This document shows positions 3,664 through 30,377 of a DNA stretch of 64,000 nt, one piece after another. The notes under the pieces were generated by a model. The model saw nothing but the letters and a program-made list of their open reading frames with translations. It did no database searches and was not told where the DNA came from. The stretch is from Bradyrhizobium valentinum (GTDB lineage: Bacteria; Pseudomonadota; Alphaproteobacteria; Rhizobiales; Xanthobacteraceae): NCBI RefSeq assembly GCF_001440405.1, contig NZ_LLXX01000120.1, positions 1 to 64,000 of the forward strand, given 5' to 3'. The number at the start of each line of letters is the position of its first letter. Position 1 is the first letter of the stretch. Position numbers and translations under genes: made by a program.

Positions 3664-6048
3664 CTAGGCGGACGCCCGCAATTCGCGGGCCGCCGCCACC
3701 ATGTTGACGAGCGCGGGTCGCACCTCTTCCCATTTGCGGGTCTTCAATCCGCAATCCGGATTGATCCAGATCTGGGTATCGGTGAGGCGCATCCGTGCCA
3801 GCTTGAGCAGGGCAGTCATCTCTTCGATCTCCGGCACCCGCGGCGAATGAATGTCGTAGACACCGGGGCCGATTTCGTTCGGATAACGGTAGTTCCTGAA
3901 CGCATCGAGCAGCTCCATTTTCGAACGCGAGGTTTCGATCGAGATCACGTCGGCGTCCATCGCGCCGATCGCATCGATGATGTCGTTGAACTCCGAGTAG
4001 CACATGTGGGTGTGGATCTGCGTCTCGTCGCGCACGCCGGACGAGCAGAGACGGAAGGCGTCAACGGTCCAGTCCAGATACGCCTTCCATTCCGATTGGC
4101 GTAGCGGCAATCCCTCGCGCAGCGCCGCCTCGTCGATCTGGATCATCCCGGCGCCGGCAGCCTCGAGATCGGCGACCTCGTCGCGGATCGCGAGCGCGAT
4201 CTGACGGCAGGCCTCACTGCGCGCAATATCGTCGCGGACGAACGACCAGTTCAGGATGGTGACGGGACCGGTCAACATCGCCTTCATCGGCTTTTTCGTC
4301 AGCGACTGGGCGTATTGCCACCACTCGACCGTCATCGGCTTCGGGCGCGAGACGTCGCCGAACAGCACCGGCGGACGGACGTAGCGCGATCCGTAGGACT
4401 GCACCCAGCCGTGCGTGGTGAAGGCGAAGCCCGCGAGCTGTTCGCCGAAATACTGCACCATGTCGTTGCGCTCGAACTCGCCATGCACGAGCACGTCGAG
4501 ACCGATGGTTTCCTGCCACTGCACGGCGCGGGCCGTCTGGTCCTGCAGATAGATCTTGTAGACTTCGTCAGTCAGGGCACCGCTGGCGTGCGCGGCGCGC
4601 GCTTTCCTGACTTCGGCCGTCTGCGGGAACGAGCCGATGGTCGTGGTCGGAAAGGCGGGCAGGTTGAAGCGCTCGTGCTGAACGCCGGCGCGCTCGGCGA
4701 ATGCGTTGGCGCGGCGACGCATGGCGTCATCGATACCGGCAATGCGCGCCGCAACCTTTGCATCGTGAATCCGCGGCGACGCCTTGCGGGCGGCGGCCGC
4801 CTCGTCCGAGGTGCGCAGGCTGGCTTCCGCGGCGCCGCGCCCACCGGCGAGCGCCGTCCCGAGCGTCGACAGTTCCTCGAGCTTCTGCACCGAGAACGCC
4901 AGCCAGCTTTTGATTTCGGAATCGAGCCCCGTTTCCAGCGCCAGGTCGATCGGGACATGCAACAGTGAGCAGGAGGGTGCGATCTGCACTCGGTCCTTGC
5001 CGAGCTTCGCGATCACAGGCTCGAGCCGGTGGAGGATCCGGCTCAAATCCGCACGCCAGATGTTGCGGCCGTCGATGATGCCGAGCGACAGCACGCGGTC
5101 ATCAGAAAAATCGGCCAGGCCGTCGATCTGCTCAGGCGCGCGTACCAGATCGAGATGCAGGCCGGCGACGGGCAGCGCCAGCGCGGTATCGCGGTTGCCG
5201 CCCAGCCCGCCGAAATAGGTTGCCAGCATGATCTTGAGCTGCGGCACCGCACTCGCGATCTCCGTATAGGCGTAATGCAGCGCCTGCTGCCCGACGATAT
5301 CGAGGTCGAGCACAAGACATGGCTCGTCGATCTGCACCCATTCGGCGCCCCGGCAAGCCAGTTCGCGCAGGACGTCGATGTAAACCGGCAGCAACCGATC
5401 AAGCAGGGACAGCGGATTGAATCCGGCATCCTTGCTCTTGGCGAGTTTGAGAAACGTGACCGGGCCGACCAGCACCGGGCGGGTCTGATAGCCCAGCGCT
5501 TTCGCTTCCTCGTACTCTTCGATCGGCTTGCGCGAGGCGAGGGTGAATTTCTGGTCCCTTGCGAGTTCGGGCACCATGTAGTGGTAGTTGGTGTCGAACC
5601 ATTTTGTCATTTCCAGCGCCGGCATGCCTTGCGCGGCGTCGCGCCCGTGATTGATATGGCCGCAGCTCGCCTCTTGCGTTTTGCCTTGCGCACCGCGGGC
5701 CATCGCAAAATAGGTCGCAAGCGGGACCGGGCCGCCGTTCCAGCGATAGATTTCCGGAACAGCACCGACCATCACTGACGTGTCGAGCATCTGGTCGTAG
5801 AATGAGAAATCGTTCGATGGAATCACGCTGACGCCGAGTTTCTTCTGGCGCGCCCAGTTGGCGGCGCGAAGCCCGGCACCGGTTTCGATCAGCGCCCTCT
5901 CGTCGGTTGCGCCCGACCAGAAGCTTTCCAAGGCGAATTTCAGCTCGCGGCGCGGGCCGATACGTGGCGTGCCGAGGGAGGCAACGGCAAGCGAGGAAGT
6001 GGAGATTGTGGAAGTAGATGATGTAGAAGATGGCGATGTAGAAGACAT
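3664..6048 (-). CDS. metE: Cobalamin-independent methionine synthase MetE
   Basis: MetE transfers the methyl group of 5-methyltetrahydropteroyl-triglutamate to homocysteine, making methionine without B12. With start at 6048 the protein is 794 aa, close to the family norm. The C-terminal catalytic half carries the zinc site: H681 and C683 in HTHMCYSEF and C766 in NPDCGLK. The upstream in-frame extension to 6138 lies in the riboswitch leader and was rejected as start. The first 25 residues are an unusual Ser/Thr low-complexity run encoded by short repeats, before the normal MetE N-terminus (LGTPRIGPRRELK). Expression should be turned off by B12 through the leader riboswitch at 6173-6350. It is monocistronic as far as can be seen. 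Confidence 0.97.
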   Translation of the reverse strand: MSSTSPSSTSSTSTISTSSLAVASLGTPRIGPRRELKFALESFWSGATDERALIETGAGLRAANWARQKKLGVSVIPSNDFSFYDQMLDTSVMVGAVPEIYRWNGGPVPLATYFAMARGAQGKTQEASCGHINHGRDAAQGMPALEMTKWFDTNYHYMVPELARDQKFTLASRKPIEEYEEAKALGYQTRPVLVGPVTFLKLAKSKDAGFNPLSLLDRLLPVYIDVLRELACRGAEWVQIDEPCLVLDLDIVGQQALHYAYTEIASAVPQLKIMLATYFGGLGGNRDTALALPVAGLHLDLVRAPEQIDGLADFSDDRVLSLGIIDGRNIWRADLSRILHRLEPVIAKLGKDRVQIAPSCSLLHVPIDLALETGLDSEIKSWLAFSVQKLEELSTLGTALAGGRGAAEASLRTSDEAAAARKASPRIHDAKVAARIAGIDDAMRRRANAFAERAGVQHERFNLPAFPTTTIGSFPQTAEVRKARAAHASGALTDEVYKIYLQDQTARAVQWQETIGLDVLVHGEFERNDMVQYFGEQLAGFAFTTHGWVQSYGSRYVRPPVLFGDVSRPKPMTVEWWQYAQSLTKKPMKAMLTGPVTILNWSFVRDDIARSEACRQIALAIRDEVADLEAAGAGMIQIDEAALREGLPLRQSEWKAYLDWTVDAFRLCSSGVRDETQIHTHMCYSEFNDIIDAIGAMDADVISIETSRSKMELLDAFRNYRYPNEIGPGVYDIHSPRVPEIEEMTALLKLARMRLTDTQIWINPDCGLKTRKWEEVRPALVNMVAAARELRASA

Positions 6049-6056
6049 TGGCTTAA

Positions 6057-6071
6057 CCCCAAAAGTTGGGG
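6057..6071 (-). promoter_or_regulatory. Hairpin containing the presumed metE ribosome-binding site
   Basis: Read on the minus strand, CCCCAA and TTGGGG pair around a 3-nt loop. The GGGG arm ends 8 nt before the metE ATG and is the only purine-rich element in ribosome-binding position. Translation may therefore depend on opening this stem; it could be the terminal part of the riboswitch expression platform. Confidence 0.45.
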
Positions 6072-6133
6072 GCAAAGGCCGAAGTGACACGTCTGGATTC
6101 CGCGTGCGGCAGCGCGCGCGGAATCGCAACCGC

Positions 6134-6161
6134 ACCACCGGGACACCCCGCCCGAGGACGT
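6134..6161 (-). promoter_or_regulatory. Leader motif shared with the nrdA leader
   Basis: On the minus strand these 28 nt match 12486-12513 (+) at 26 of 28 positions. In both leaders the motif lies just 3' of the cobalamin aptamer (about 11-14 nt away) and contains GGGCGGGGTGTCCCGG. It is presumably the expression platform, which alternates pairing with the aptamer 3' end. Confidence 0.65.
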
Positions 6162-6172
6162 GTATGTTGTCG

Positions 6173-6350
6173 AGGCAGGTCTCCTGGCTCGCGGGTCAGT
6201 GCTGCTGTCCGGCCTTCCCGAAACCTTGAAAGGTCTCAGTGACTTTGTTGGACAGCGGCTCGCCGCTTACAGTTGCGGGGGCAGCTCCGGCTTTGGCTTT
6301 TCGGCCGCACCGGCTTCCCTCTTAGCTTCGGGCCGAACCAGCCCGAAGAA
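6173..6350 (-). ncRNA. Cobalamin riboswitch upstream of metE
   Basis: On the minus strand the leader shows the standard order of cobalamin-aptamer signatures: GGGAAGCCGGTG near 6320-6309, GCTGCCCCCGCAACTGTAAGC near 6285-6265, the B12-box-like GTCACTG at 6243-6237, and GAGCCAGGAGACCTGCC ending at about 6174. It reports adenosylcobalamin and is expected to shut off metE when B12 is available, so that a B12-dependent methionine synthase can be used. Confidence 0.93.
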
Positions 6351-6362
6351 CCACGACGGGTT

Positions 6363-6391
6363 CAGTTAAGATCAATGGCGGTCTCAGTCAA
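6363..6391 (-). promoter_or_regulatory. Probable metE promoter
   Basis: On the minus strand TTGACT (6391-6386) is followed after 17 nt by TAACTG (6368-6363), placing the start of transcription right at the 5' end of the riboswitch. The -10 element is weak. Confidence 0.4.
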
Positions 6392-6474
6392 CATGAGATC
6401 GGTCGTTCCCCCGCTGCGCTCTCTGCCATCGTTCGATGAACGCCGTTCCGATCGAAGCTGCGATAGCTACATAT

Positions 6475-7395
6475 TCACCTCTGCGGCATGCCTGTGGGAA
6501 CGACGGTTTTGACGATGGAGGCGTCGAGCGCCTCGTAGTCGTGCAGCCCGATCGTTGCGTAGAGTTCGGCGCGCGTCTGCATCTGGTCGAGCATCTTGCA
6601 GGTGCTGCCGTCGCGTTTGAGGGTCGTGAATAGAGTCTGCTGGGCCTTGTTGGCGACGCGGAGCGACGACACCGGCCAGATCATCATGCGATAGCCCATG
6701 GCCTCGAACTCGGATGCGGTGAAGAAGGGCGTCTTGCCAAACTCCGTCATGTTCGCGAGCAATGGAACGCCGGGAACGCGCCTTGCAAACTCCTCGAACA
6801 TCTCGCGCGAGATCATCGCTTCCGGGAAGATCGCGTCCGCTCCCGCTTCCAGATAAAGTTTGGCACGCGCCACCGCGCCGTCCATCCCTTCGCTCGCCGC
6901 GGCATCCGTCCTCGCGATCAGATAGAGATGCCGCCGCGCCTTTGCGGCGGCGGCGACCTTGGCGGCTATGTCGCGCGCATCCGCCAGCTTCTTGTCGTTG
7001 AGATGGCCGCACTTCTTCGGAAGAAGTTGGTCCTCGATATGAACGGCCGCTGCACCGGCATCCTCGAAGGTGCGCACCATGTTCATGACATTGAGCGCTT
7101 CGCCATAACCAGTGTCGCCATCGACCAGAACCGGCAGGCCGCCGGCGCGCGCCACCTGGCGGATGAAGAAGGCGACTTCCTCGATTGTGATAATGCCGAG
7201 ATCGGGCAGGCCCATCGAAGCCGTCATTGCCGCGCCTGACAGATAGAGCGCGGAAAAACCGGCGTCGCGGGCCTGCAGCGCGGCCATTCCGTTGTGCGCG
7301 CCCGGCATCTGAAGAATGCCTGGTCTGCCCAGGAGGTCGCGGAAGCGGGCCCCTGCGGGGTTGTCGGCGAGATCAGTACCCAGGAGATATACCAT
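6475..7395 (-). CDS. prpB: 2-methylisocitrate lyase PrpB
   Basis: PrpB cleaves 2-methylisocitrate to pyruvate and succinate, the last step of the methylcitrate cycle for propionyl-CoA. The 306-aa protein belongs to the isocitrate lyase/PEP mutase superfamily. It has the Mg-binding stretch VDGDTGYGE (residues 91-99) and the active-site loop KKCGH (127-131), where C129 is the catalytic cysteine. The start at 7395 was chosen over an upstream in-frame ATG because AAGGAAG lies 6 nt before it and it leaves only 10 nt to the prpC stop. It is the last gene of the thioesterase-prpD-prpC-prpB operon. Plain isocitrate lyase is unlikely, since that enzyme is much longer. Confidence 0.92.
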   Translation of the reverse strand: MVYLLGTDLADNPAGARFRDLLGRPGILQMPGAHNGMAALQARDAGFSALYLSGAAMTASMGLPDLGIITIEEVAFFIRQVARAGGLPVLVDGDTGYGEALNVMNMVRTFEDAGAAAVHIEDQLLPKKCGHLNDKKLADARDIAAKVAAAAKARRHLYLIARTDAAASEGMDGAVARAKLYLEAGADAIFPEAMISREMFEEFARRVPGVPLLANMTEFGKTPFFTASEFEAMGYRMMIWPVSSLRVANKAQQTLFTTLKRDGSTCKMLDQMQTRAELYATIGLHDYEALDASIVKTVVPTGMPQR

Positions 7396-7405
7396 CGTTG
7401 CTTCC

Positions 7406-8578
7406 TTACGCGGCGCGTGGGGCGATGGCGGCTTTGCCACGCTCATGCAGCGGCACGAACTTCAGATTCTCCGGGCCGACATAGTTTGCGGCCGGGCGGA
7501 TGATCTTGTTGTTGATGCGCTGTTCTATCACATGCGCCGCCCATCCGGACGTCCGTGAAATCACGAACAGCGGCGTGAACATCGCGGTCGGCACCCCCAT
7601 CGCGTGGTAGGAGACCGCGCTGAACCAGTCGAGATTGGCGAACATCTTCTTGGCGTCGGCCATCACAGCCTCGATCCGCTCCGCGATCTCGAACATCCGG
7701 GTGCTTTCGCCCTCGATGCTGAGGCGACGCGCGACTTCCTTGATCACCTTGTTGCGTGGATCGGCAATGGTGTAGACTGGATGACCGAAGCCGATGATGA
7801 CTTCCTTGGCCGCGACGCGCCGACGGATATCGGCCTCCGCCTCTTCCGTGTCGCCGTAGCGCTTCTGCACTTCGAAGGCGATTTCGTTGGCGCCGCCATG
7901 CTTTGGTCCGCGCAGCGCGCCGATCGCGCCTGTTATCGCGGAATAGAGGTCCGAGCCGGTTCCGGCGATCGAGCGCGCAGTGAACGTCGAGGCGTTGTAC
8001 TCGTGCTCCGCGTAGAGGATCAGCGAGGTATGCATCGCACGCTCGTGCGATGGTGGCGGCTTCCTGCCATGGAGCAGATGCAGGAAGTGCGAGCCGATCG
8101 AATCGTCGTCGGTTTCGACGTCGATCCGGCGGCCGTGGTGGGCGTAGTGGTGCCAGTAGAGCAGCATCGATCCGAGCGAGGCCATCAGCCGGTCGGCAAT
8201 ATCGCGCGCGCCGGGCTGATTGTGATCATGGGCTTCCGGCAGGATGCAGCCGAGCGCGGAGACGCCGCTTCTTAAGACGTCCATCGGATGTGCGGCGGCG
8301 GGCAGCAACTCCAGCGTCTGCAACACCGCGAGCGGCAACCCGCGCAGCGCCTTCAGCTTGGCCTTGTAGTTTCTGAGCTCGGGCAGCGTGGGCAGGCTGC
8401 CGTGAACGAGAAGATACGCGATCTCCTCGAATTCGCAGCTTTCCGCGACATCGAGAATGTCGTAGCCGCGATAATGCAGGTCGTTTCCGGTGCGGCCGAC
8501 CGTGCACAGCGCAGTGTCGCCGGCAATGACGCCGGAGAGCGCAACCGATTTTTTGGGGGCGGGCTTGATGTCCGTCAT
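7406..8578 (-). CDS. prpC: 2-methylcitrate synthase PrpC (citrate synthase family)
   Basis: PrpC condenses propionyl-CoA with oxaloacetate to 2-methylcitrate. The 390-aa length fits the short type II-like citrate synthases used for propionate. Catalytic residues are visible: H227 in [11 protein letters not shown]266 in GFGHPVY and D317 in NLDWFSA, plus R342 in SRTSGW. The assignment as methylcitrate rather than citrate synthase comes from its position between prpB and prpD. AGGGAG precedes the ATG and only 11 nt separate it from the prpD stop, so it is cotranscribed. Some activity with acetyl-CoA is usual in this family. Confidence 0.92.
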
Positions 8579-8589
8579 CTCAATCTCCC

Positions 8590-10143
8590 TTATCGATTGC
8601 CGGCAGCGCAGTGGACCGCAACCGCGGCGGCGTCATGCCAATCGAAGATGCCGTGCGTTGACGCCCTGCCGAGGAATTTTGGATCGACCGTGAAGGTGAG
8701 GTCGGTCAGCTCTCCTGCTTTGAGTGAGGCCAGCCTCTCGACCGTTGCGATGAAGCGATCCTGCTCAGCCGCGCTGATCACGCCTTCCGCCAGGTTGCGG
8801 AACTTCCGGATGTAGTCCGGCCGCTTGAACGGGCGGGTGCCCAGCGGATGCGCATCAGCCAGCGCAATTTCGTCGCTGAAGACGGAGCCGCCCTTCAGCT
8901 TCACGACGACGCGGCCGCCGAACGCCTTTTCCTTCGGATCGTGGCTGTGGTAGCGGCGGGTCCATGCGGGGTCTTCGACGGTCGAGATCTTGCGCCACAG
9001 CGCGACCGTCGTGTCGCGGCCCGCGCGCTCTGGGGCATAGGATCGTTCGTGATGCCAGCCGCCGTCTTCCAGCGCGACCGCGAAAATGTACATGATCGAA
9101 TGGTCGAGCGTTTCGCGGCTCGCCTTCGGGTCCATCTTCTGCGGGTCGTTGGCGCCGGTGCCGATGACGTAGTGGGTGTGATGGCTGGTGTGGATGACGA
9201 TGCTTTCGATCTTCGAGAGATCGCCGATCTTCGGTCCGAGCCGGCGCGCGAGGTCGATCAAGGCTTGGCTCTGATATTCGGCCGAGTGCTCCTTGGTGTA
9301 GGTGTCGAGAATGGCGCGCTTGGGCTCGCCCTTTTCCGGCAGCGGCACCGTGTATTCCGCGCTGGGCCCGCCGAGCAGCCAGGCGATGAAGCCGTCCTCG
9401 CCCTCATAGGCGGGTGACGGCGCGCCTTCGCCGCGCATCACGCGATCGACGGATTCGATCGCCATCTTGCCAGCGAAAGCCGGCGCATAGGCCTTCCAGC
9501 TCGATATCTCGCCCTTGCGCGACTGCCGCGTCGTCGTGGTGACGTGGAGCGCCTGCTGAACGGCCTGATAGATCGTCTCGGCATGCAATCCGAGCAGCGC
9601 GCCGATCCCGGCGGCGGCGGACGGCCCGAGATGGGCGATGTGATCGATCTTGTGCTCGTGCAGGCAGATGCCCTTCACGAGATCGATCTGAATCTCGTAG
9701 GCCGCAGCCAGCCCGCGAACGAGGTCCGCGCCCGCTAGCCCGCAGTGCTGGGCGACAGCCAGTACCGGCGGAATGTTGTCGCCGGGATGCGAATAGTCCG
9801 CCGCCAGGAACGTATCGTGGAAATCGAGTTCGCGGACGGCGACGCCGTTGGCCCACGCGGCCCATTCCGGCGAAATCCGCTGCGACCGCGTCAATCCGAA
9901 CACGGTGGCCCCCGGCTGAAATGGATGCGCCTCGGCTTGCGTTCGCGCGCTGACGACGGGACGCCGAGCGACCGAGGCTGCGGCAACGGCGGCGTTGTCG
10001 ATGATGCGGTTGCCCAGCATTTCCACCACATCGCTCTCGACCGCGACCGGGTCAGCGGCCACCTCGGCGATCTTCCAGGCCAGTTGGCTCGCGCGCGGGA
10101 GACGATCGGCCGATTTGAAAGTACGAACGCTATGCTGTTTCAA
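8590..10143 (-). CDS. prpD: 2-methylcitrate dehydratase PrpD (MmgE/PrpD family)
   Basis: PrpD dehydrates 2-methylcitrate to 2-methylaconitate. The 517-aa product has the MmgE/PrpD all-helical core (for example [18 protein letters not shown] near residue 125) and the smaller C-terminal lid domain. No acnD or prpF is present, so this is the cofactor-free PrpD route, with rehydration left to a general aconitase elsewhere. The start is a TTG at 10143 that overlaps the TGA of the upstream thioesterase gene (TTGA), with AAGGAAG 7 nt upstream; the longer open frame runs through the thioesterase gene in another frame and was rejected. It is translationally coupled to the thioesterase. Confidence 0.9.
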
Positions 10144-10571
10144 GACGCAGCTTCCTTCTGAATTGGATCGGTCATGGTTGGTCGCGTGATCGGGACCGGA
10201 CGGCCGAATTCGTCCACCGCGACCATCTCGAATGTCCCGCGCACCGCGGATTTCCGCCGGCCGCTGATCAGGTCTTCGCGGACCATGTCGACGGTAACCG
10301 TCATGGAGCTGCGGCCGACGCGTACGACCTGAGCAATGAGTTCGATGAGCTCGCCGACATGGATCGGCTCGTGAAATTCGATCTTGTCCGAGGTCGCCAT
10401 GACGACGCTCTGGCGGGCGCGCCGCGTGGCCGTGACGAATGCCGCCTTGCCCATCAGGCTCAGGGCATGGCCGCCGAACAGCGTGCCGTAGTGATTGGCC
10501 TGCTCCGGAAACACCATCTCCACGAACCGGGTTTCGTCGGGATGAAGGTTTGGCGACGCCGCTGCATGCAT
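10140..10571 (-). CDS. Hotdog-fold acyl-CoA thioesterase in the prp operon
   Basis: This 143-aa protein is a single hotdog domain of the YciA/cytosolic acyl-CoA hydrolase type, with the signature [20 protein letters not shown] near residues 26-45. It may release CoA from propionyl-CoA or other short acyl-CoAs when the cycle is overloaded. In YciA-type enzymes the residue after the conserved Met is a catalytic Asp; here it is Gly-Lys (MGKAAF), so the mechanism or activity may differ. It is the first gene of the prp operon and overlaps prpD by 4 nt. The regulator gene starts divergently 134 bp away. Confidence 0.8.
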
Positions 10572-10705
10572 TTTCCTGCTCCGGACGACTTGTCATTCCG
10601 TACCGACTTCGCAATATCTACAAGCGGGCCCCATCGAAATGGCTGAAAAAGCATAGTCTTGCGAAGAAACCCCAGCCAGCCTGCAAAGTTTGCGAAGGTG
10701 ATGTG

Positions 10706-12127
10706 ATGAAAAAGACCTTCATGGGCGTGCGGTTGAAAAGATTGCGCGAGGAGCAGCGCCTGACGCAGGCGGCGCTTGCCGGCAAACTCGGGATATCGCT
10801 GAGCTACCTCAACCAACTGGAAAACAATCAGCGTCCACTCACCGTGCCGGTGCTGCTGGCGCTCAATTCGGTGTTCGGCCTTGACGTGCAGTCGTTCGCC
10901 GAGGGCGACGAAGCCCGCTTGATCTCGGACTTGCGCGAAGCGCTTGCGGATCCTTCGTTGGGTGAGACAATCGCTGTCGCCGAACTTCGCGAACTCGCGC
11001 AGAGCATGCCCGCGGTCGGGCGCGCGCTGGTCAATCTGAACCGCAAATATCGCCATGCCGCCGAGCAATATGCGGCGCTTTCCGCGCGGCTCGGCGAGGA
11101 CCGTCAGGCAACGGCGGCGGTTCTGGCGTCCACGCCGTTCGAGGAAGTCCGCGACTTCTTTTATCTGCAGCACAACCACATTGCCGAGCTCGACGATGCG
11201 GCGGAAGCGATCGCGGGCCGGATGGAATTGCCGATCGGGCGGATGACGCCGGGCCTGGTGTCGTATCTCGAAAGCCGGCATGGCGTGACTGTCCTGATCG
11301 ACGCAAGCGACGAGCTGGGATCGGGAACGCAGCGCCTGTTCGATGGCCGCACACGAACGCTGCGGCTGTCGCCAAGCCTTGATCCGGGCCAGCAGGCATT
11401 CCAGCTCGCGACGCAGATCGCCATTCTGGAACTGGACGAGGCGATCCGTTCGATCGTCGACAAGGCAAAGTTCACCAGCGACGAAGCGCGCGGCCTGGCC
11501 CGCATCGGGCTTGCGAATTATTTCGCCGGCGCGCTGATTTTGCCATACGCTGTTTTCCTCAACGAGGCGGAGCGATGCCGTTACGATATCGAATTGCTCA
11601 GTCACCGGTTCGGCGTGGGCTTTGAAACGATCTGTCACCGGCTCAGCACCCTGCAGCGCCATAATGCGCGGGGCGTGCCGTTCTTCTTCATCCGCGTCGA
11701 TCGCGCCGGAAATATATCGAAGCGGCAATCGGCGACCGACTTCCATTTTTCGCGGGTCGGTGGCACCTGTCCGCTGTGGAACGTTTATGAGGCCTTCGCC
11801 AACCCGGGGCGTATTCTGACGCAATTGGCGCGGATGCCTGATGAGCGAACCTATCTCTGGGTTGCCCGGACGGTGTCGCACGGCAGCGGAGGCTACGGAG
11901 CGCCCGCCAAGACGTTTGCCGTTGCCCTGGGATGTGATGTTCGCCATGCCGAGCGAATCATCTATTCGCAGGGCCTCAAGATCGATCCATCGCTGGCGAC
12001 GCCGATCGGCATGGGCTGCAAGGTGTGCGAACGGCCCGCTTGTCCGCAGCGGGCGTTTCCACCTGTTGGCCGGGCCCTTCGAATCGACGAGACGCGATCG
12101 CGCTTCGCGCCCTATGCCACGTCATGA
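10706..12127 (+). CDS. prpR: PrpR/RamB-like short-chain fatty-acid regulator (XRE-ImmA/IrrE-like)
   Basis: This 473-aa protein has an N-terminal XRE helix-turn-helix (residues about 8-62), a central domain of the ImmA/IrrE type that has lost the HExxH zinc motif (QLATQIAILEL where it is expected), and a C-terminal Cys-rich region ending GCKVCERPACPQ. This is the architecture of actinobacterial PrpR/RamB, which control propionate and glyoxylate genes; mycobacterial PrpR binds acyl-CoA and an Fe-S cluster. The gene is divergent from the thioesterase-prpDCB operon, so it very likely controls that operon. GAAGGTG precedes the ATG at 10706; the longer open frame has no better start. Confidence 0.85.
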   Translation: MKKTFMGVRLKRLREEQRLTQAALAGKLGISLSYLNQLENNQRPLTVPVLLALNSVFGLDVQSFAEGDEARLISDLREALADPSLGETIAVAELRELAQSMPAVGRALVNLNRKYRHAAEQYAALSARLGEDRQATAAVLASTPFEEVRDFFYLQHNHIAELDDAAEAIAGRMELPIGRMTPGLVSYLESRHGVTVLIDASDELGSGTQRLFDGRTRTLRLSPSLDPGQQAFQLATQIAILELDEAIRSIVDKAKFTSDEARGLARIGLANYFAGALILPYAVFLNEAERCRYDIELLSHRFGVGFETICHRLSTLQRHNARGVPFFFIRVDRAGNISKRQSATDFHFSRVGGTCPLWNVYEAFANPGRILTQLARMPDERTYLWVARTVSHGSGGYGAPAKTFAVALGCDVRHAERIIYSQGLKIDPSLATPIGMGCKVCERPACPQRAFPPVGRALRIDETRSRFAPYATS

Positions 12128-12250
12128 TCTCACATAGCCGGGATATCGGGGAAAACGGCTTTCACGCGGAGAAAGAATCGGCTCTTTCGTGTTCCCCATC
12201 CCTCTTGCGGATTTTTTTGGAAATTGCGGGCATCGATTCCCCCGGCCCCA

Positions 12251-12280
12251 TTGACACTCCGCTGCGAATAATACCAGATA
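12251..12280 (+). promoter_or_regulatory. Probable nrdAB promoter
   Basis: A perfect TTGACA (12251-12256) with the weak -10 candidates CCAGAT or CAGATA 17-18 nt downstream puts transcription start at the 5' edge of the riboswitch. The stretch 12128-12250 before it contains no other recognisable signal. Confidence 0.45.
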
Positions 12281-12295
12281 TAGGCGTCACGGCCC

Positions 12296-12472
12296 GCCAG
12301 ATCGCAAGATTTGGTGGCTAAGAGGGAAGCCGGTGTATCGCATGTTTTGCGAGAGTCCGGCGCTGCCCCCGCAACTGTAAGCAGTGAGTTGCTCCCGATT
12401 TCACGTCACTGATGCGGCCACGCATTGGGAAGACCGGGTGCAACGCTGACCTGCGAGCCAGGAGACCTGCCG
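12296..12472 (+). ncRNA. Cobalamin riboswitch upstream of nrdA
   Basis: The leader carries the ordered signatures of the cobalamin aptamer: AAGAGGGAAGCCGGTG near 12320-12335, GCTGCCCCCGCAACTGTAAGC near 12362-12382, the B12-box-like GTCACTG at 12405-12411, and GAGCCAGGAGACCTGCC ending near 12471. B12 should repress the downstream oxygen-dependent, B12-independent ribonucleotide reductase. The aptamer ends about 135 nt before the nrdA start. Confidence 0.94.
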
Positions 12473-12473
12473 C

Positions 12474-12513
12474 GACACCGAAAAAACGTCCACGGGCGGG
12501 GTGTCCCGGCGGT
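12474..12513 (+). promoter_or_regulatory. nrdA riboswitch expression platform with motif shared with metE
   Basis: The 28 nt at 12486-12513 match the metE leader (6161-6134, minus strand) at 26 positions. GACACC (12474-12479), directly after the aptamer, can pair with GGTGTC (12500-12505) inside the motif, giving a possible alternative stem. No U-run follows, so control could be at translation or by Rho. Confidence 0.55.
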
Positions 12514-12607
12514 CGCTTGCAGATTCATGCCGGTACCTTGCGCCGGGCATCCTATGCAGCGTCGCCTCAAGACATCCAGAGCCTCAACAACACTACGGGG
12601 TCTGCCG

Positions 12608-15526
<2,919 letters not shown>

Positions 15527-15552
15527 GCAGACAAGAAAAGAAGGAAATGACA

Positions 15553-16683
15553 ATGCTCGACTGGTCCGAACCCGCTGCGCCCTCGCGCCAGATGCCGCCC
15601 ACCGTGGTGGCCCAAACCATCGTTGTGGCCGATCAAACCGGCCTCGGCACCATCGACCGAAGCGGCGGCAGGGTATCCGTCGACGACAAGCGGATGATCA
15701 ACTGCCGCGCCGACGTCAATCAATTGCTGCCGCTGAAATACAAATGGGCATGGGAGAAATATCTCGCCGGCTGCAACAATCACTGGATGCCGACCGAAGT
15801 CTCGATGCAGGCCGACATCGCACTGTGGAAGTCGCGCGACGGCCTTACCGAGGACGAGCGCCGCGCCATCAAGCGCAATCTCGGCTTTTTCGCGGCCTCC
15901 GAAAGCCTCGTCGCCAACAACATCGTGCTGGCGATCTACCGCCATCTGACCAATCCGGAATGCCGGCAGTATCTGCTGCGGCAGTCCTTCGAGGAGGCCG
16001 TTCACACCCACACCTTCCAGTACATCGTCGAAAGCCTCGGCCTCGACGAGGGCGAGCTGTTCAACATGTACCGCGAGGTGCCGTCGATCACCGACAAGGC
16101 GGCCTGGGCGCTGAAACATACCCAGCATCTCGACGATCCCGATTTCAGGACCGGGACGCCGGAGGCCGACCAGGCGTTCCTGCGCGACCTCGTTGCCTTC
16201 TACGTCATCTTCGAGGGCATGTGGTTCTATACCGGGTTCGCCCAGATCCTCTCGCTCGGCCGCCGCAACAAGATGGTCGGGATCGCGGAGCAGTACCAAT
16301 ACATCCTGCGCGATGAATCGATTCATCTGAACTTCGGCATCGACGTCATCAACCAGATCAAGATCGAGAATCCGCATCTGTGGACCAAGGCGTTTCAGGA
16401 CGAAGTCCGCGCCATGGTGCGCGAGGCGGCTGAGCTAGAGGCGGCCTATGGGCGGGACACCATGCCGCGCGGCTTTCTCGGCCTGAATGCGGCGCTGTGC
16501 GAGAGCTATATGCACTTCATCGCCAACCGCCGCTGCGCGCAACTTGGGCTGGCGCGGGTGTTTGATGAAGCCGAGAATCCGTTTCCCTGGATGTCGGAGG
16601 CGATGGACCTGAAGAAGGAGAAGAACTTCTTCGAGACACGGGTGATCGAGTATCAGAACGGCGGTGCGCTGAGCTGGGAGTAG
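15553..16683 (+). CDS. nrdB: Ribonucleotide reductase small (beta) subunit, class Ic-like with Phe at the radical site
   Basis: The small subunit houses the dinuclear metal cofactor that starts the radical chain. In the 376-aa product the metal ligands are E117, E148, H151, E221, E255 and H258. The position of the tyrosyl radical (Tyr four residues after the first ligand His) is F155 in EEAVHTHTF. The same Phe and a Glu as first ligand are found in the Chlamydia class Ic enzyme, which uses Mn(IV)/Fe(III) instead of a tyrosyl radical; I infer the same here. ATG 15553 was chosen because AAGGA lies 7 nt upstream; ATG 15547 is too close to it. Controlled with nrdA by the cobalamin riboswitch. Confidence 0.93.
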
Positions 16684-30258: not shown

Positions 30259-30377
30259 GCGGGCCACTCCGTTGAAGGTCCAATCCGACATCGCAGTTCG
30301 CTTGAACTGCCAGAGGGGCCCGGGCTTGGACGTGCGTAGACAAAAGACGCAGTCAGACTGCGGAAATGTTGTTCCGG

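What the first reader, a model, noticed from the sequence alone, without database searches (positions are those of the whole stretch)
3664..16683. Three B12-independent pathways clustered in 13 kb, two under cobalamin riboswitches
Seen: metE and nrdAB each follow a cobalamin riboswitch; between them lies a complete methylcitrate operon (thioesterase-prpDCB) with its regulator. Known: MetE, class I ribonucleotide reductase and the methylcitrate cycle are each the B12-free alternative to a B12 enzyme (MetH, class II NrdJ, methylmalonyl-CoA mutase). Inference: the region is a B12-sparing island. The prp operon has no riboswitch of its own, so it would respond to propionyl-CoA accumulating when the mutase lacks B12, linking it indirectly to the same signal.
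Basis: partly seen in the sequence, partly recalled or inferred. Interest (0 to 1): 0.75.

Follow-up and report, generated by a model that had tools for sequence, protein, structure and literature searches.

The report
Vitamin B12-independence gene island
Three ways of living without vitamin B12 sit side by side in this soil bacterium, two behind RNA sensors of B12 and one probably controlled by the metabolite that builds up when B12 runs out, and similar groupings recur in distant relatives with different enzymes in the same roles.

Summary
In detail: metE and nrdAB each follow a strong cobalamin riboswitch, and between them lie a thioesterase, prpDCB and a PrpR/MccR-type regulator. The genome also encodes the three B12-dependent counterparts (MetH, NrdJ, methylmalonyl-CoA mutase), so the set is facultative. 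In Bradyrhizobium the complete island is rare (5 of 61 sampled genomes); metE and nrdAB also occur as a bare divergent pair (7 of 61), and prpB remnants upstream of other metE copies suggest repeated prp loss. Beyond the genus the association recurs: of 52 loci with prpDCB (actinobacterial and gammaproteobacterial loci set aside), 27 have a cobalamin riboswitch within about 10 kb (43 riboswitches; 0.63 expected). Of the 43, 34 precede B12-free enzymes (metE, two nrdA lineages, nrdD, nrdIEF, MesX); none was assigned to prp, which has a conserved PrpR-type operator instead. Best reading: a B12-independence island with two sensors, B12 read by riboswitches (metE, nrdAB) and propionyl-CoA read by MccR (prp). 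The island is well supported; induction of prp by B12 shortage is inference, and a published mutant result speaks against simple compensation. Extra lead: a GbcA-like Rieske oxygenase behind cobalamin riboswitches. My searches listed no paper describing the cluster, but key subscription papers were not held.

The parts
3664..6048 (-). metE, cobalamin-independent methionine synthase (794 aa from the chosen ATG)
   Evidence: NF003556 1136.8 bits, TIGR01371 1104.8 bits; both Meth_synt Pfam domains
6050..6080 (-). predicted hairpin that pairs the GGGG before the metE start codon with CCCC
   Evidence: CCCC and GGGG arms recognisable in 19 of the 20 metE leaders aligned (not in L064); GGGG predicted fully paired in the window
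6157..6370 (-). cobalamin riboswitch of metE
   Evidence: RF00174 124.7 bits, E 7e-31
6364..6391 (-). predicted metE promoter TTGACT-N16-TTAACT between prpB and the riboswitch
   Evidence: TTGAC kept upstream of 24 of the 27 metE riboswitches aligned, changed in L008, L050, L051; by eye only, not reported by the promoter scan
6475..7446 (-). prpB, methylisocitrate lyase
   Evidence: TIGR02317 423.5 bits, above cut-off
7406..8578 (-). prpC, 2-methylcitrate synthase
   Evidence: NF009006 691.3 bits, above cut-off
8590..10143 (-). prpD, 2-methylcitrate dehydratase; the TTG start overlapping the thioesterase stop is my choice
   Evidence: NF042438 910.8 bits (cut-off 950), MmgE_PrpD domains; start from the sequence
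10140..10571 (-). hotdog-fold acyl-CoA thioesterase, first gene of the prp operon
   Evidence: YciA E 1.7e-12 and hotdog domain E 1.1e-6, both below cut-off; same position in many prp loci
10608..10624 (.). possible second, weaker regulator-binding site
   Evidence: 4 mismatches to the pattern, a level also reached elsewhere in the window, so weak on its own; in many relatives a site lies 72-73 bp from the main one
10680..10696 (.). predicted MccR/PrpR operator, CCTGCAAAGTTTGCGAA
   Evidence: published M. tuberculosis PrpR motif TTTGCAAA-n-TTTGCgAA (PMC6765138); 2 mismatches to the pattern; a site with up to 3 mismatches in 54 of 62 regulator-prp intergenic regions, 0.85 expected
10706..12127 (+). 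ScfR-family regulator of the MccR/PrpR type
   Evidence: PF09856; M. tuberculosis PrpR structure 6cz6, E 8.7e-123
12250..12256 (+). conserved ATTGACA element before the nrdAB riboswitch (-35-like; -10 not assigned)
   Evidence: TTGACA present in 22 of 22 nrdA leaders aligned; not reported by the promoter scan
12273..12488 (+). cobalamin riboswitch of nrdAB
   Evidence: RF00174 129.7 bits, E 2.6e-32
12608..15526 (+). nrdA, class I ribonucleotide reductase large subunit
   Evidence: NF005544 1718.9 bits; ATP-cone and barrel domains
15487..16683 (+). nrdB, class I ribonucleotide reductase small subunit
   Evidence: NF005550 683 bits

Best explanation
This is a facultative B12-independence island read by two sensors. 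(1) When cobalamin is plentiful it binds the two riboswitches, the GGGG before each start codon stays paired, and MetE and NrdAB are not made; MetH and NrdJ do the work. When cobalamin is short, both are translated from transcripts with their own promoters. (2) The methylcitrate operon has no riboswitch: MccR/PrpR, transcribed divergently, is expected to bind propionyl-CoA and activate prp at the operator at 10680-10696. If lack of B12 stalls methylmalonyl-CoA mutase, propionyl-CoA should rise and switch prp on. Selection keeps the three together as a gain-and-loss unit for B12- or cobalt-poor conditions. Shown by sequence: the genes, riboswitches, operator-like site, B12-dependent counterparts elsewhere in the genome, recurrence of the grouping. 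Inferred: the direction of the switches and their translational mode, propionyl-CoA as ligand, its rise under B12 limitation, and selection for linkage.
For: Riboswitches and gene identities. MetH, NrdJ and mutase in the genome. Enrichment: 43 riboswitches in 1.03 Mb around 52 prpDCB loci, 0.63 expected, in 27 of 52 loci. In a sample drawn by genome, 9 of 17 intact prpDCB loci found in 397 order-level genomes have one, 17 riboswitches in all against about 0.2 by the same density (my arithmetic). Non-homologous substitutes occupy the same neighbourhood: MetE or MesX; two NrdA lineages, NrdD, NrdIEF. No riboswitch was assigned to prp. Operator-like site in 54 of 62 regions, 0.85 expected. The regulator aligns with PrpR over residues 63-472 and keeps C-terminal cysteines and the Phe that I infer to be PrpR Phe155. 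The Caulobacter metE leader shows cobalamin-dependent translational shut-off (PMC6538847, passages).
Against: No expression data. Complete island in only 5 of 61 Bradyrhizobium. 25 of the 52 prpDCB loci have no riboswitch by pattern search, and 12 of these 25 none by Rfam. Of 24 loci with metE, 7 show no riboswitch before it. In Rhodobacter capsulatus the methylcitrate cycle did not replace the mutase route when pccR was deleted, and mccR deletion left growth on propionate unaffected (PMC10370305). nrdAB may be kept for oxygen or growth-rate reasons. Related loci are not independent. The negative control is weak: only about 0.07 riboswitches were expected there.
Confidence: 0.76

Rival explanations
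1. Neighbours by history: a metE-nrdAB riboswitch pair and a propionate catabolic operon happen to be adjacent in this lineage, and prp serves only the breakdown of valine, odd-chain fatty acids or propionate regardless of B12.
For: Bare pairs exist in 7 of 61 genomes; prpD of this type was found in only 5 of 61; prp has a carbon-source regulator.
Against: 43 riboswitches against 0.63 expected around prpDCB in many genera, with different B12-free enzymes filling the same place.
Confidence: 0.15
2. Read-through model: transcription from the central MccR-controlled promoters runs into the two riboswitches, so that metE and nrdAB need both propionyl-CoA and lack of B12.
For: prpDCB points at the metE riboswitch and mccR at the nrdAB riboswitch, gaps 104 and 145 bp; the terminator scan found 11 sites, 10.5 expected from shuffles.
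Against: A TTGAC-type element lies just before each riboswitch and is kept where prp is absent; bare pairs exist without prp; in several other loci distance or other genes separate prp from metE.
Confidence: 0.07
3. Mobile block: the whole island spreads between species by horizontal transfer as a unit, and linkage reflects transfer rather than joint regulation.
For: Patchy distribution; similar groupings in Erythrobacter, Stella, Tistrella and a gammaproteobacterial Porticoccus MAG; the island state needs at least 4 changes on the nrdA tree.
Against: Enzymes in the same place are often non-homologous, which one transferred block cannot explain; in Bradyrhizobium flanking genes are shared by several islands and prp-less pairs, and prpB remnants point to loss. 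prpD and metE trees were not built.
Confidence: 0.14

Closest known systems
Cobalamin riboswitch control of metE (e.g. Caulobacter crescentus, PMC6538847, passages)
   Same: Alphaproteobacterial riboswitch before metE; the genome also has MetH
   Different: There the only two genes with B12 riboswitches are metE and btuB; propionate and methylcitrate are not mentioned in the main text
ScfR family regulators MccR/PrpR (M. tuberculosis PrpR, PMC6765138; Paracoccus and Rhodobacter MccR, PMC10370305; passages)
   Same: Same family, next to prp, same type of 17-bp operator; Paracoccus also lists an acyl-CoA thioesterase with prpDCB
   Different: The passages read do not connect the operon with cobalamin riboswitches, metE or nrd genes
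B12-dependent versus B12-independent pathway pairs in mycobacteria (PMC4428469, passages)
   Same: The methylcitrate cycle as B12-free alternative to the methylmalonate pathway
   Different: In the passages read the B12-free genes are not described as one cluster
MesD/MesX methionine synthase (PMC7857596, passages)
   Same: Cobalamin-free methionine synthesis; MesX occurs near prp in 5 of the 52 loci, twice behind a riboswitch
   Different: Not in this window; the paper's main text mentions neither riboswitch nor methylcitrate

Membership tests
Cobalamin riboswitch (RF00174) | full-length aptamer above the gathering score | tested here: met
   129.7 and 124.7 bits, model 1-189 of 189, gathering 31.5
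Cobalamin riboswitch (RF00174) | ligand binding and repression by cobalamin | not testable with these tools
   needs an assay; only a paired ribosome site is predicted
MccR/PrpR (ScfR family) regulator | HTH, M78-like and ScfR C-terminal domains | tested here: met
   HTH_3, Peptidase_M78 and PF09856 in order
MccR/PrpR (ScfR family) regulator | similar to PrpR, linked to prp, PrpR-type operator between them | tested here: met
   only PrpR structures matched, best E 8.7e-123; operator-like site at 10680-10696. The other ScfR of the genome lies next to an isocitrate-lyase-family gene and is taken as RamB-like
MccR/PrpR (ScfR family) regulator | aromatic residue at PrpR position 155, linked in the paper to propionyl-CoA response | tested here: inconclusive
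   Phe at residue 145 of the window protein aligns with a chain Phe that becomes 155 only if the 23 extra residues of the crystal chain are N-terminal
Methylcitrate cycle operon | prpB, prpC, prpD together, intact | tested here: met
   prpB and prpC above cut-offs; prpD 910.8 against 950; no internal stops
MetE | N- and C-terminal Meth_synt domains, equivalog score | tested here: met
Class I ribonucleotide reductase NrdAB | NrdA with ATP-cone and barrel, adjacent NrdB | tested here: met
B12-independence island (as defined here) | B12-dependent counterparts present in the same genome | tested here: met
   MetH C21, NrdJ C79, mutase C206
B12-independence island (as defined here) | gene order conserved in the genus | tested here: not met
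   complete in 5 of 61 genomes
B12-independence island (as defined here) | recurrence beyond the genus above chance | tested here: met
   27 of 52 loci, 43 riboswitches against 0.63; 9 of 17 in the order sample; the two sets share at least five loci

The most novel reading that the evidence does not exclude
In Alphaproteobacteria the methylcitrate operon is a recurrent nucleus around which cobalamin-riboswitch-controlled, B12-free isoenzymes have collected more than once with non-homologous parts (MetE or MesD/MesX; class Ia, Ib or III ribonucleotide reductases; probably a GbcA-like betaine demethylase), giving a modular B12-independence system with two inputs, B12 and propionyl-CoA. Riboswitch linkage to prp could then be used to find further B12-free enzymes.
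Probability: 0.6. Interest if true: 0.74.

Novelty: new variant of a known kind. Interest (0 to 1): 0.6.

Why it matters
Each part is known, but I found no description of the linked set. If real it means that propionyl-CoA disposal, methionine synthesis and DNA precursor synthesis are selected together as one answer to B12 or cobalt shortage, and that genes behind cobalamin riboswitches near prp are good candidates for unrecognised B12-free enzymes, as the Rieske oxygenase suggests. Cobalt and B12 supply bears on rhizobial nitrogen fixation (general knowledge, not tested here), which gives the question a practical side.

Tried and rejected
Read-through from the central promoters into both riboswitches: considered and largely dropped because TTGAC-type elements lie just before the riboswitches and persist where prp is absent. 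Block transfer as sole cause: largely dropped because different loci carry non-homologous enzymes. The second ScfR of the genome as PccR: dropped, it lies next to an isocitrate-lyase-family gene, so RamB-like. Terminator and sigma-70 scans gave about as many sites as shuffles. The 7 kb between nrdA and metE in G137 is not prp: it holds a WD40/nSTAND gene. Structure prediction and fold search were not used.

How good the counts are. The riboswitch pattern search missed two riboswitches that Rfam found outside Alphaproteobacteria (L127, L129), so its counts are lower bounds. All 13 pattern hits in the seven pattern-positive prp loci given to Rfam were confirmed (L063, L073, L078, L085, L089, L095, L101); 12 of the 25 pattern-negative loci were given to Rfam and none had a cobalamin riboswitch. 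In the order sample, 6 of the 8 intact loci without riboswitch were given to Rfam, the other two (L149, L152) were seen by pattern only. My note gives 9/18 for the order sample; the right count is 9 of 17 (L154 lacks prpC).

Rows dropped before counts: from the 80 named loci I set aside 18 actinobacterial and 2 gammaproteobacterial loci, then 8 without both prpB and prpC matches, leaving 52; the 8 include two with a riboswitch on short contigs (L065, L110), and two of the 52 are unclassified proteobacterial MAGs (L102, L109). The named set is the best 80 of at least 586 loci, chosen by prpD similarity. Five loci of the order sample lie on contigs of the same length as named ones (L139/L052, L141/L066, L146/L092, L149/L103, L152/L105), so the two sets overlap; these five were left out of the operator count. 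The background density uses 46 of the 119 genomes, typed by hand from its table, all of one family and scored with stricter filters; even a tenfold higher density would give about 6 riboswitches, not 43.
Full report
What is there. The window lies in an 8.8 Mb genome whose nearest named relatives at this locus are Bradyrhizobium. Two cobalamin riboswitches, 124.7 and 129.7 bits, precede metE and nrdAB. Between them stand, leftward, a thioesterase and prpD, prpC, prpB, and rightward an ScfR-type regulator.

The B12-dependent counterparts exist. The genome has methylmalonyl-CoA mutase (two ORFs, contig C206), NrdJ (C79, 2360 bits against a cut-off of 1737) and MetH (C21). All three families are matched in 61 of 61 genus genomes sampled, NrdJ above its cut-off in 60. 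Behind the other four cobalamin riboswitches found in the genome the first sizeable ORFs are a TonB-dependent receptor, a tetrapyrrole methylase, a CobW protein and a second, broken metE. So the island adds B12-free routes to a cell that also has B12 routes and some cobalamin genes.

Conservation inside the genus. Among 61 genomes, nrdA of this type (75% identity or more, at least 800 residues matched) occurs in 17, in two of them in two pieces (G148, G157); metE in 33, broken in one of them (G156); prpD (85% or more) and the regulator (75% or more) in the same 5. In all 5, prp lies between metE and nrdAB. In 7 more, metE and nrdAB stand divergently 0.8 to 1.4 kb apart with no prp; in 1 (G137) a WD40/nSTAND gene lies between; in 4 nrdAB has no divergent metE beside it. 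A further genome (G152) has the pair with nrdAB in fragments. The pattern search finds a riboswitch before each of the 17 nrdA genes. Flanking genes (ftsH on one side, two genes on the other) are shared by several islands and bare pairs. On an nrdA tree of 27 sequences the island label needs at least 4 changes. Of 23 loci with other metE copies, 9 show a remnant of the 3' part of prpB just upstream of metE; eight of these have a riboswitch by pattern. One is the second metE of this genome, broken by frame changes and a stop, in which the TTGAC element is also changed. I read this as repeated loss of prp from an older prp-riboswitch-metE arrangement; repeated gain is not excluded.

Recurrence outside the genus. 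The named set is the 80 best prpD relatives. After setting aside 18 actinobacterial, 2 gammaproteobacterial and 8 incomplete loci, 52 with prpB, prpC and prpD remain; 27 of them have at least one cobalamin riboswitch within about 10 kb, 43 in all, against 0.63 expected from 0.61 per Mb. Four of the 27 are Bradyrhizobium. Genes assigned to the 43: metE 17, nrdA of the window type 8, nrdD 3, MesX 2, nrdI 2, a second nrdA lineage 2, Rieske oxygenase 2, TonB receptor 2, none of these 5; none was prp. Seven of the 24 loci with metE show no riboswitch before it (L063, L083, L085, L089, L094, L095, L101). Because this set is chosen by similarity, I also used a sample drawn by genome: 397 genomes of the order, 29 with prpD, 30 loci, 17 with intact prpDCB, 9 of these with a riboswitch (17 riboswitches; 4 of the 9 loci are Bradyrhizobium); 6 of the 8 without belong to one genus, Devosia by contig match. 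No riboswitch was seen by pattern in the other 13 loci. Examples with all three functions: Roseiarcaceae L063, Rhizobiales L068, Erythrobacter tepidarius L078, Stella L090 and Tistrella L095 (another nrdA lineage), Rhodomicrobium L092 (nrdD), Metarhizobium L073 (nrdI and a distant nrdA, metE and Rieske, four riboswitches) and the gammaproteobacterial Porticoccus MAG L129, where Rfam finds one before nrdA. Twelve loci around mutase, NrdJ and MetH genes and the second ScfR hold no cobalamin riboswitch, but only about 0.07 were expected there, so this control is weak.

Regulation. The regulator matches M. tuberculosis PrpR over residues 63-472 (E 8.7e-123) and keeps C-terminal cysteines. The published PrpR motif (PMC6765138, passages) is found at 10680-10696 with 2 mismatches to my degenerate form, with a weaker, on its own insignificant, site 72 bp away; a site occurs in 54 of 62 regulator-prp regions against 0.85 in shuffles, the Devosia regions being among those without. 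Before the riboswitches lie TTGAC-type elements, kept in 24 of 27 metE and 22 of 22 nrdA leaders aligned. After the aptamers come a GGGCGGGGTGTCCC element and, before the start codon, C-rich and GGGG arms predicted to pair. Translational shut-off by cobalamin has been measured for the Caulobacter metE leader (PMC6538847, passages); for this window it is inferred.

Limits. There are no expression data here. The Phe155 correspondence rests on an assumed tag position. Loci are phylogenetically related, the two samples overlap, and the background density comes from one family. In Rhodobacter capsulatus deletion of pccR impaired growth on propionate despite mccR and methylcitrate genes, and deletion of mccR left it unaffected (PMC10370305, passages), so the idea that prp simply takes over when the mutase route fails may not hold everywhere. 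Order and class names beyond the record titles are from recall.

Novelty. Ten searches of the held library listed no paper whose title or shown abstract describes this cluster; I saw passages of eight papers and none of those passages described it. Carter and Alber 2015 was not held, and Rodionov and co-workers 2003 was seen only as an entry in a reference list. I therefore call it a new variant of a known kind.

Noticed in passing
L073:14095-15339, L078:1485-2837, L147:2973-4220, and loci L173-L202: A Rieske oxygenase related to GbcA (520 bits, below the cut-off of 670) and to PDB 3vca and 4qup (3vca as stachydrine demethylase is recall) stands behind a cobalamin riboswitch. In 297 order-level genomes 36 have a match, 38 matches, 30 loci fetched; in 18 of the 30 Rfam finds a riboswitch just before the gene, 15 of 20 at 61% identity or more and 3 of 10 at 52-57% (L179 is the same gene as in L147). 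Possibly a B12-free replacement for corrinoid-dependent betaine demethylation. A reductase and an alcohol-dehydrogenase-like gene follow it in L073, a homocysteine S-methyltransferase lies further on in L147.
   Followed up: partly
L008 (own genome contig C187), about 6780-9825: A second metE, broken by frame changes and a stop, still behind a cobalamin riboswitch (120.4 bits) but with the TTGAC element changed, and with a prpB remnant upstream.
   Followed up: yes
window 30276-30331 (-): terC RNA motif, RF03067, 49.4 bits against gathering 39.9.
   Followed up: no
G167 contig C1, about 5871143-5871962 (inside L170): The MetH activation domain is split between two frames in an island-bearing genome; a sequencing error or early loss of metH.
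   Followed up: no
L016:7873-12090: In G137 a 1405-aa ORF with nSTAND1 and WD40 domains lies between nrdAB and metE where other genomes have prp or little.
   Followed up: no
G308 contig C22, about 186-211 kb (L141, L176): A prpDCB locus counted as lacking a riboswitch has two cobalamin riboswitches, one before the Rieske gene, about 22 kb away on the same contig.
   Followed up: no
L101:13486-14616, L102:3565-5433, L085:986-2707: Other ORFs after cobalamin riboswitches near prp: a BLUF-domain protein, a fatty acyl-AMP ligase and a FecCD-type transporter.
   Followed up: no
L084, L088: MesX lies near prp with no cobalamin riboswitch found by Rfam.
   Followed up: partly
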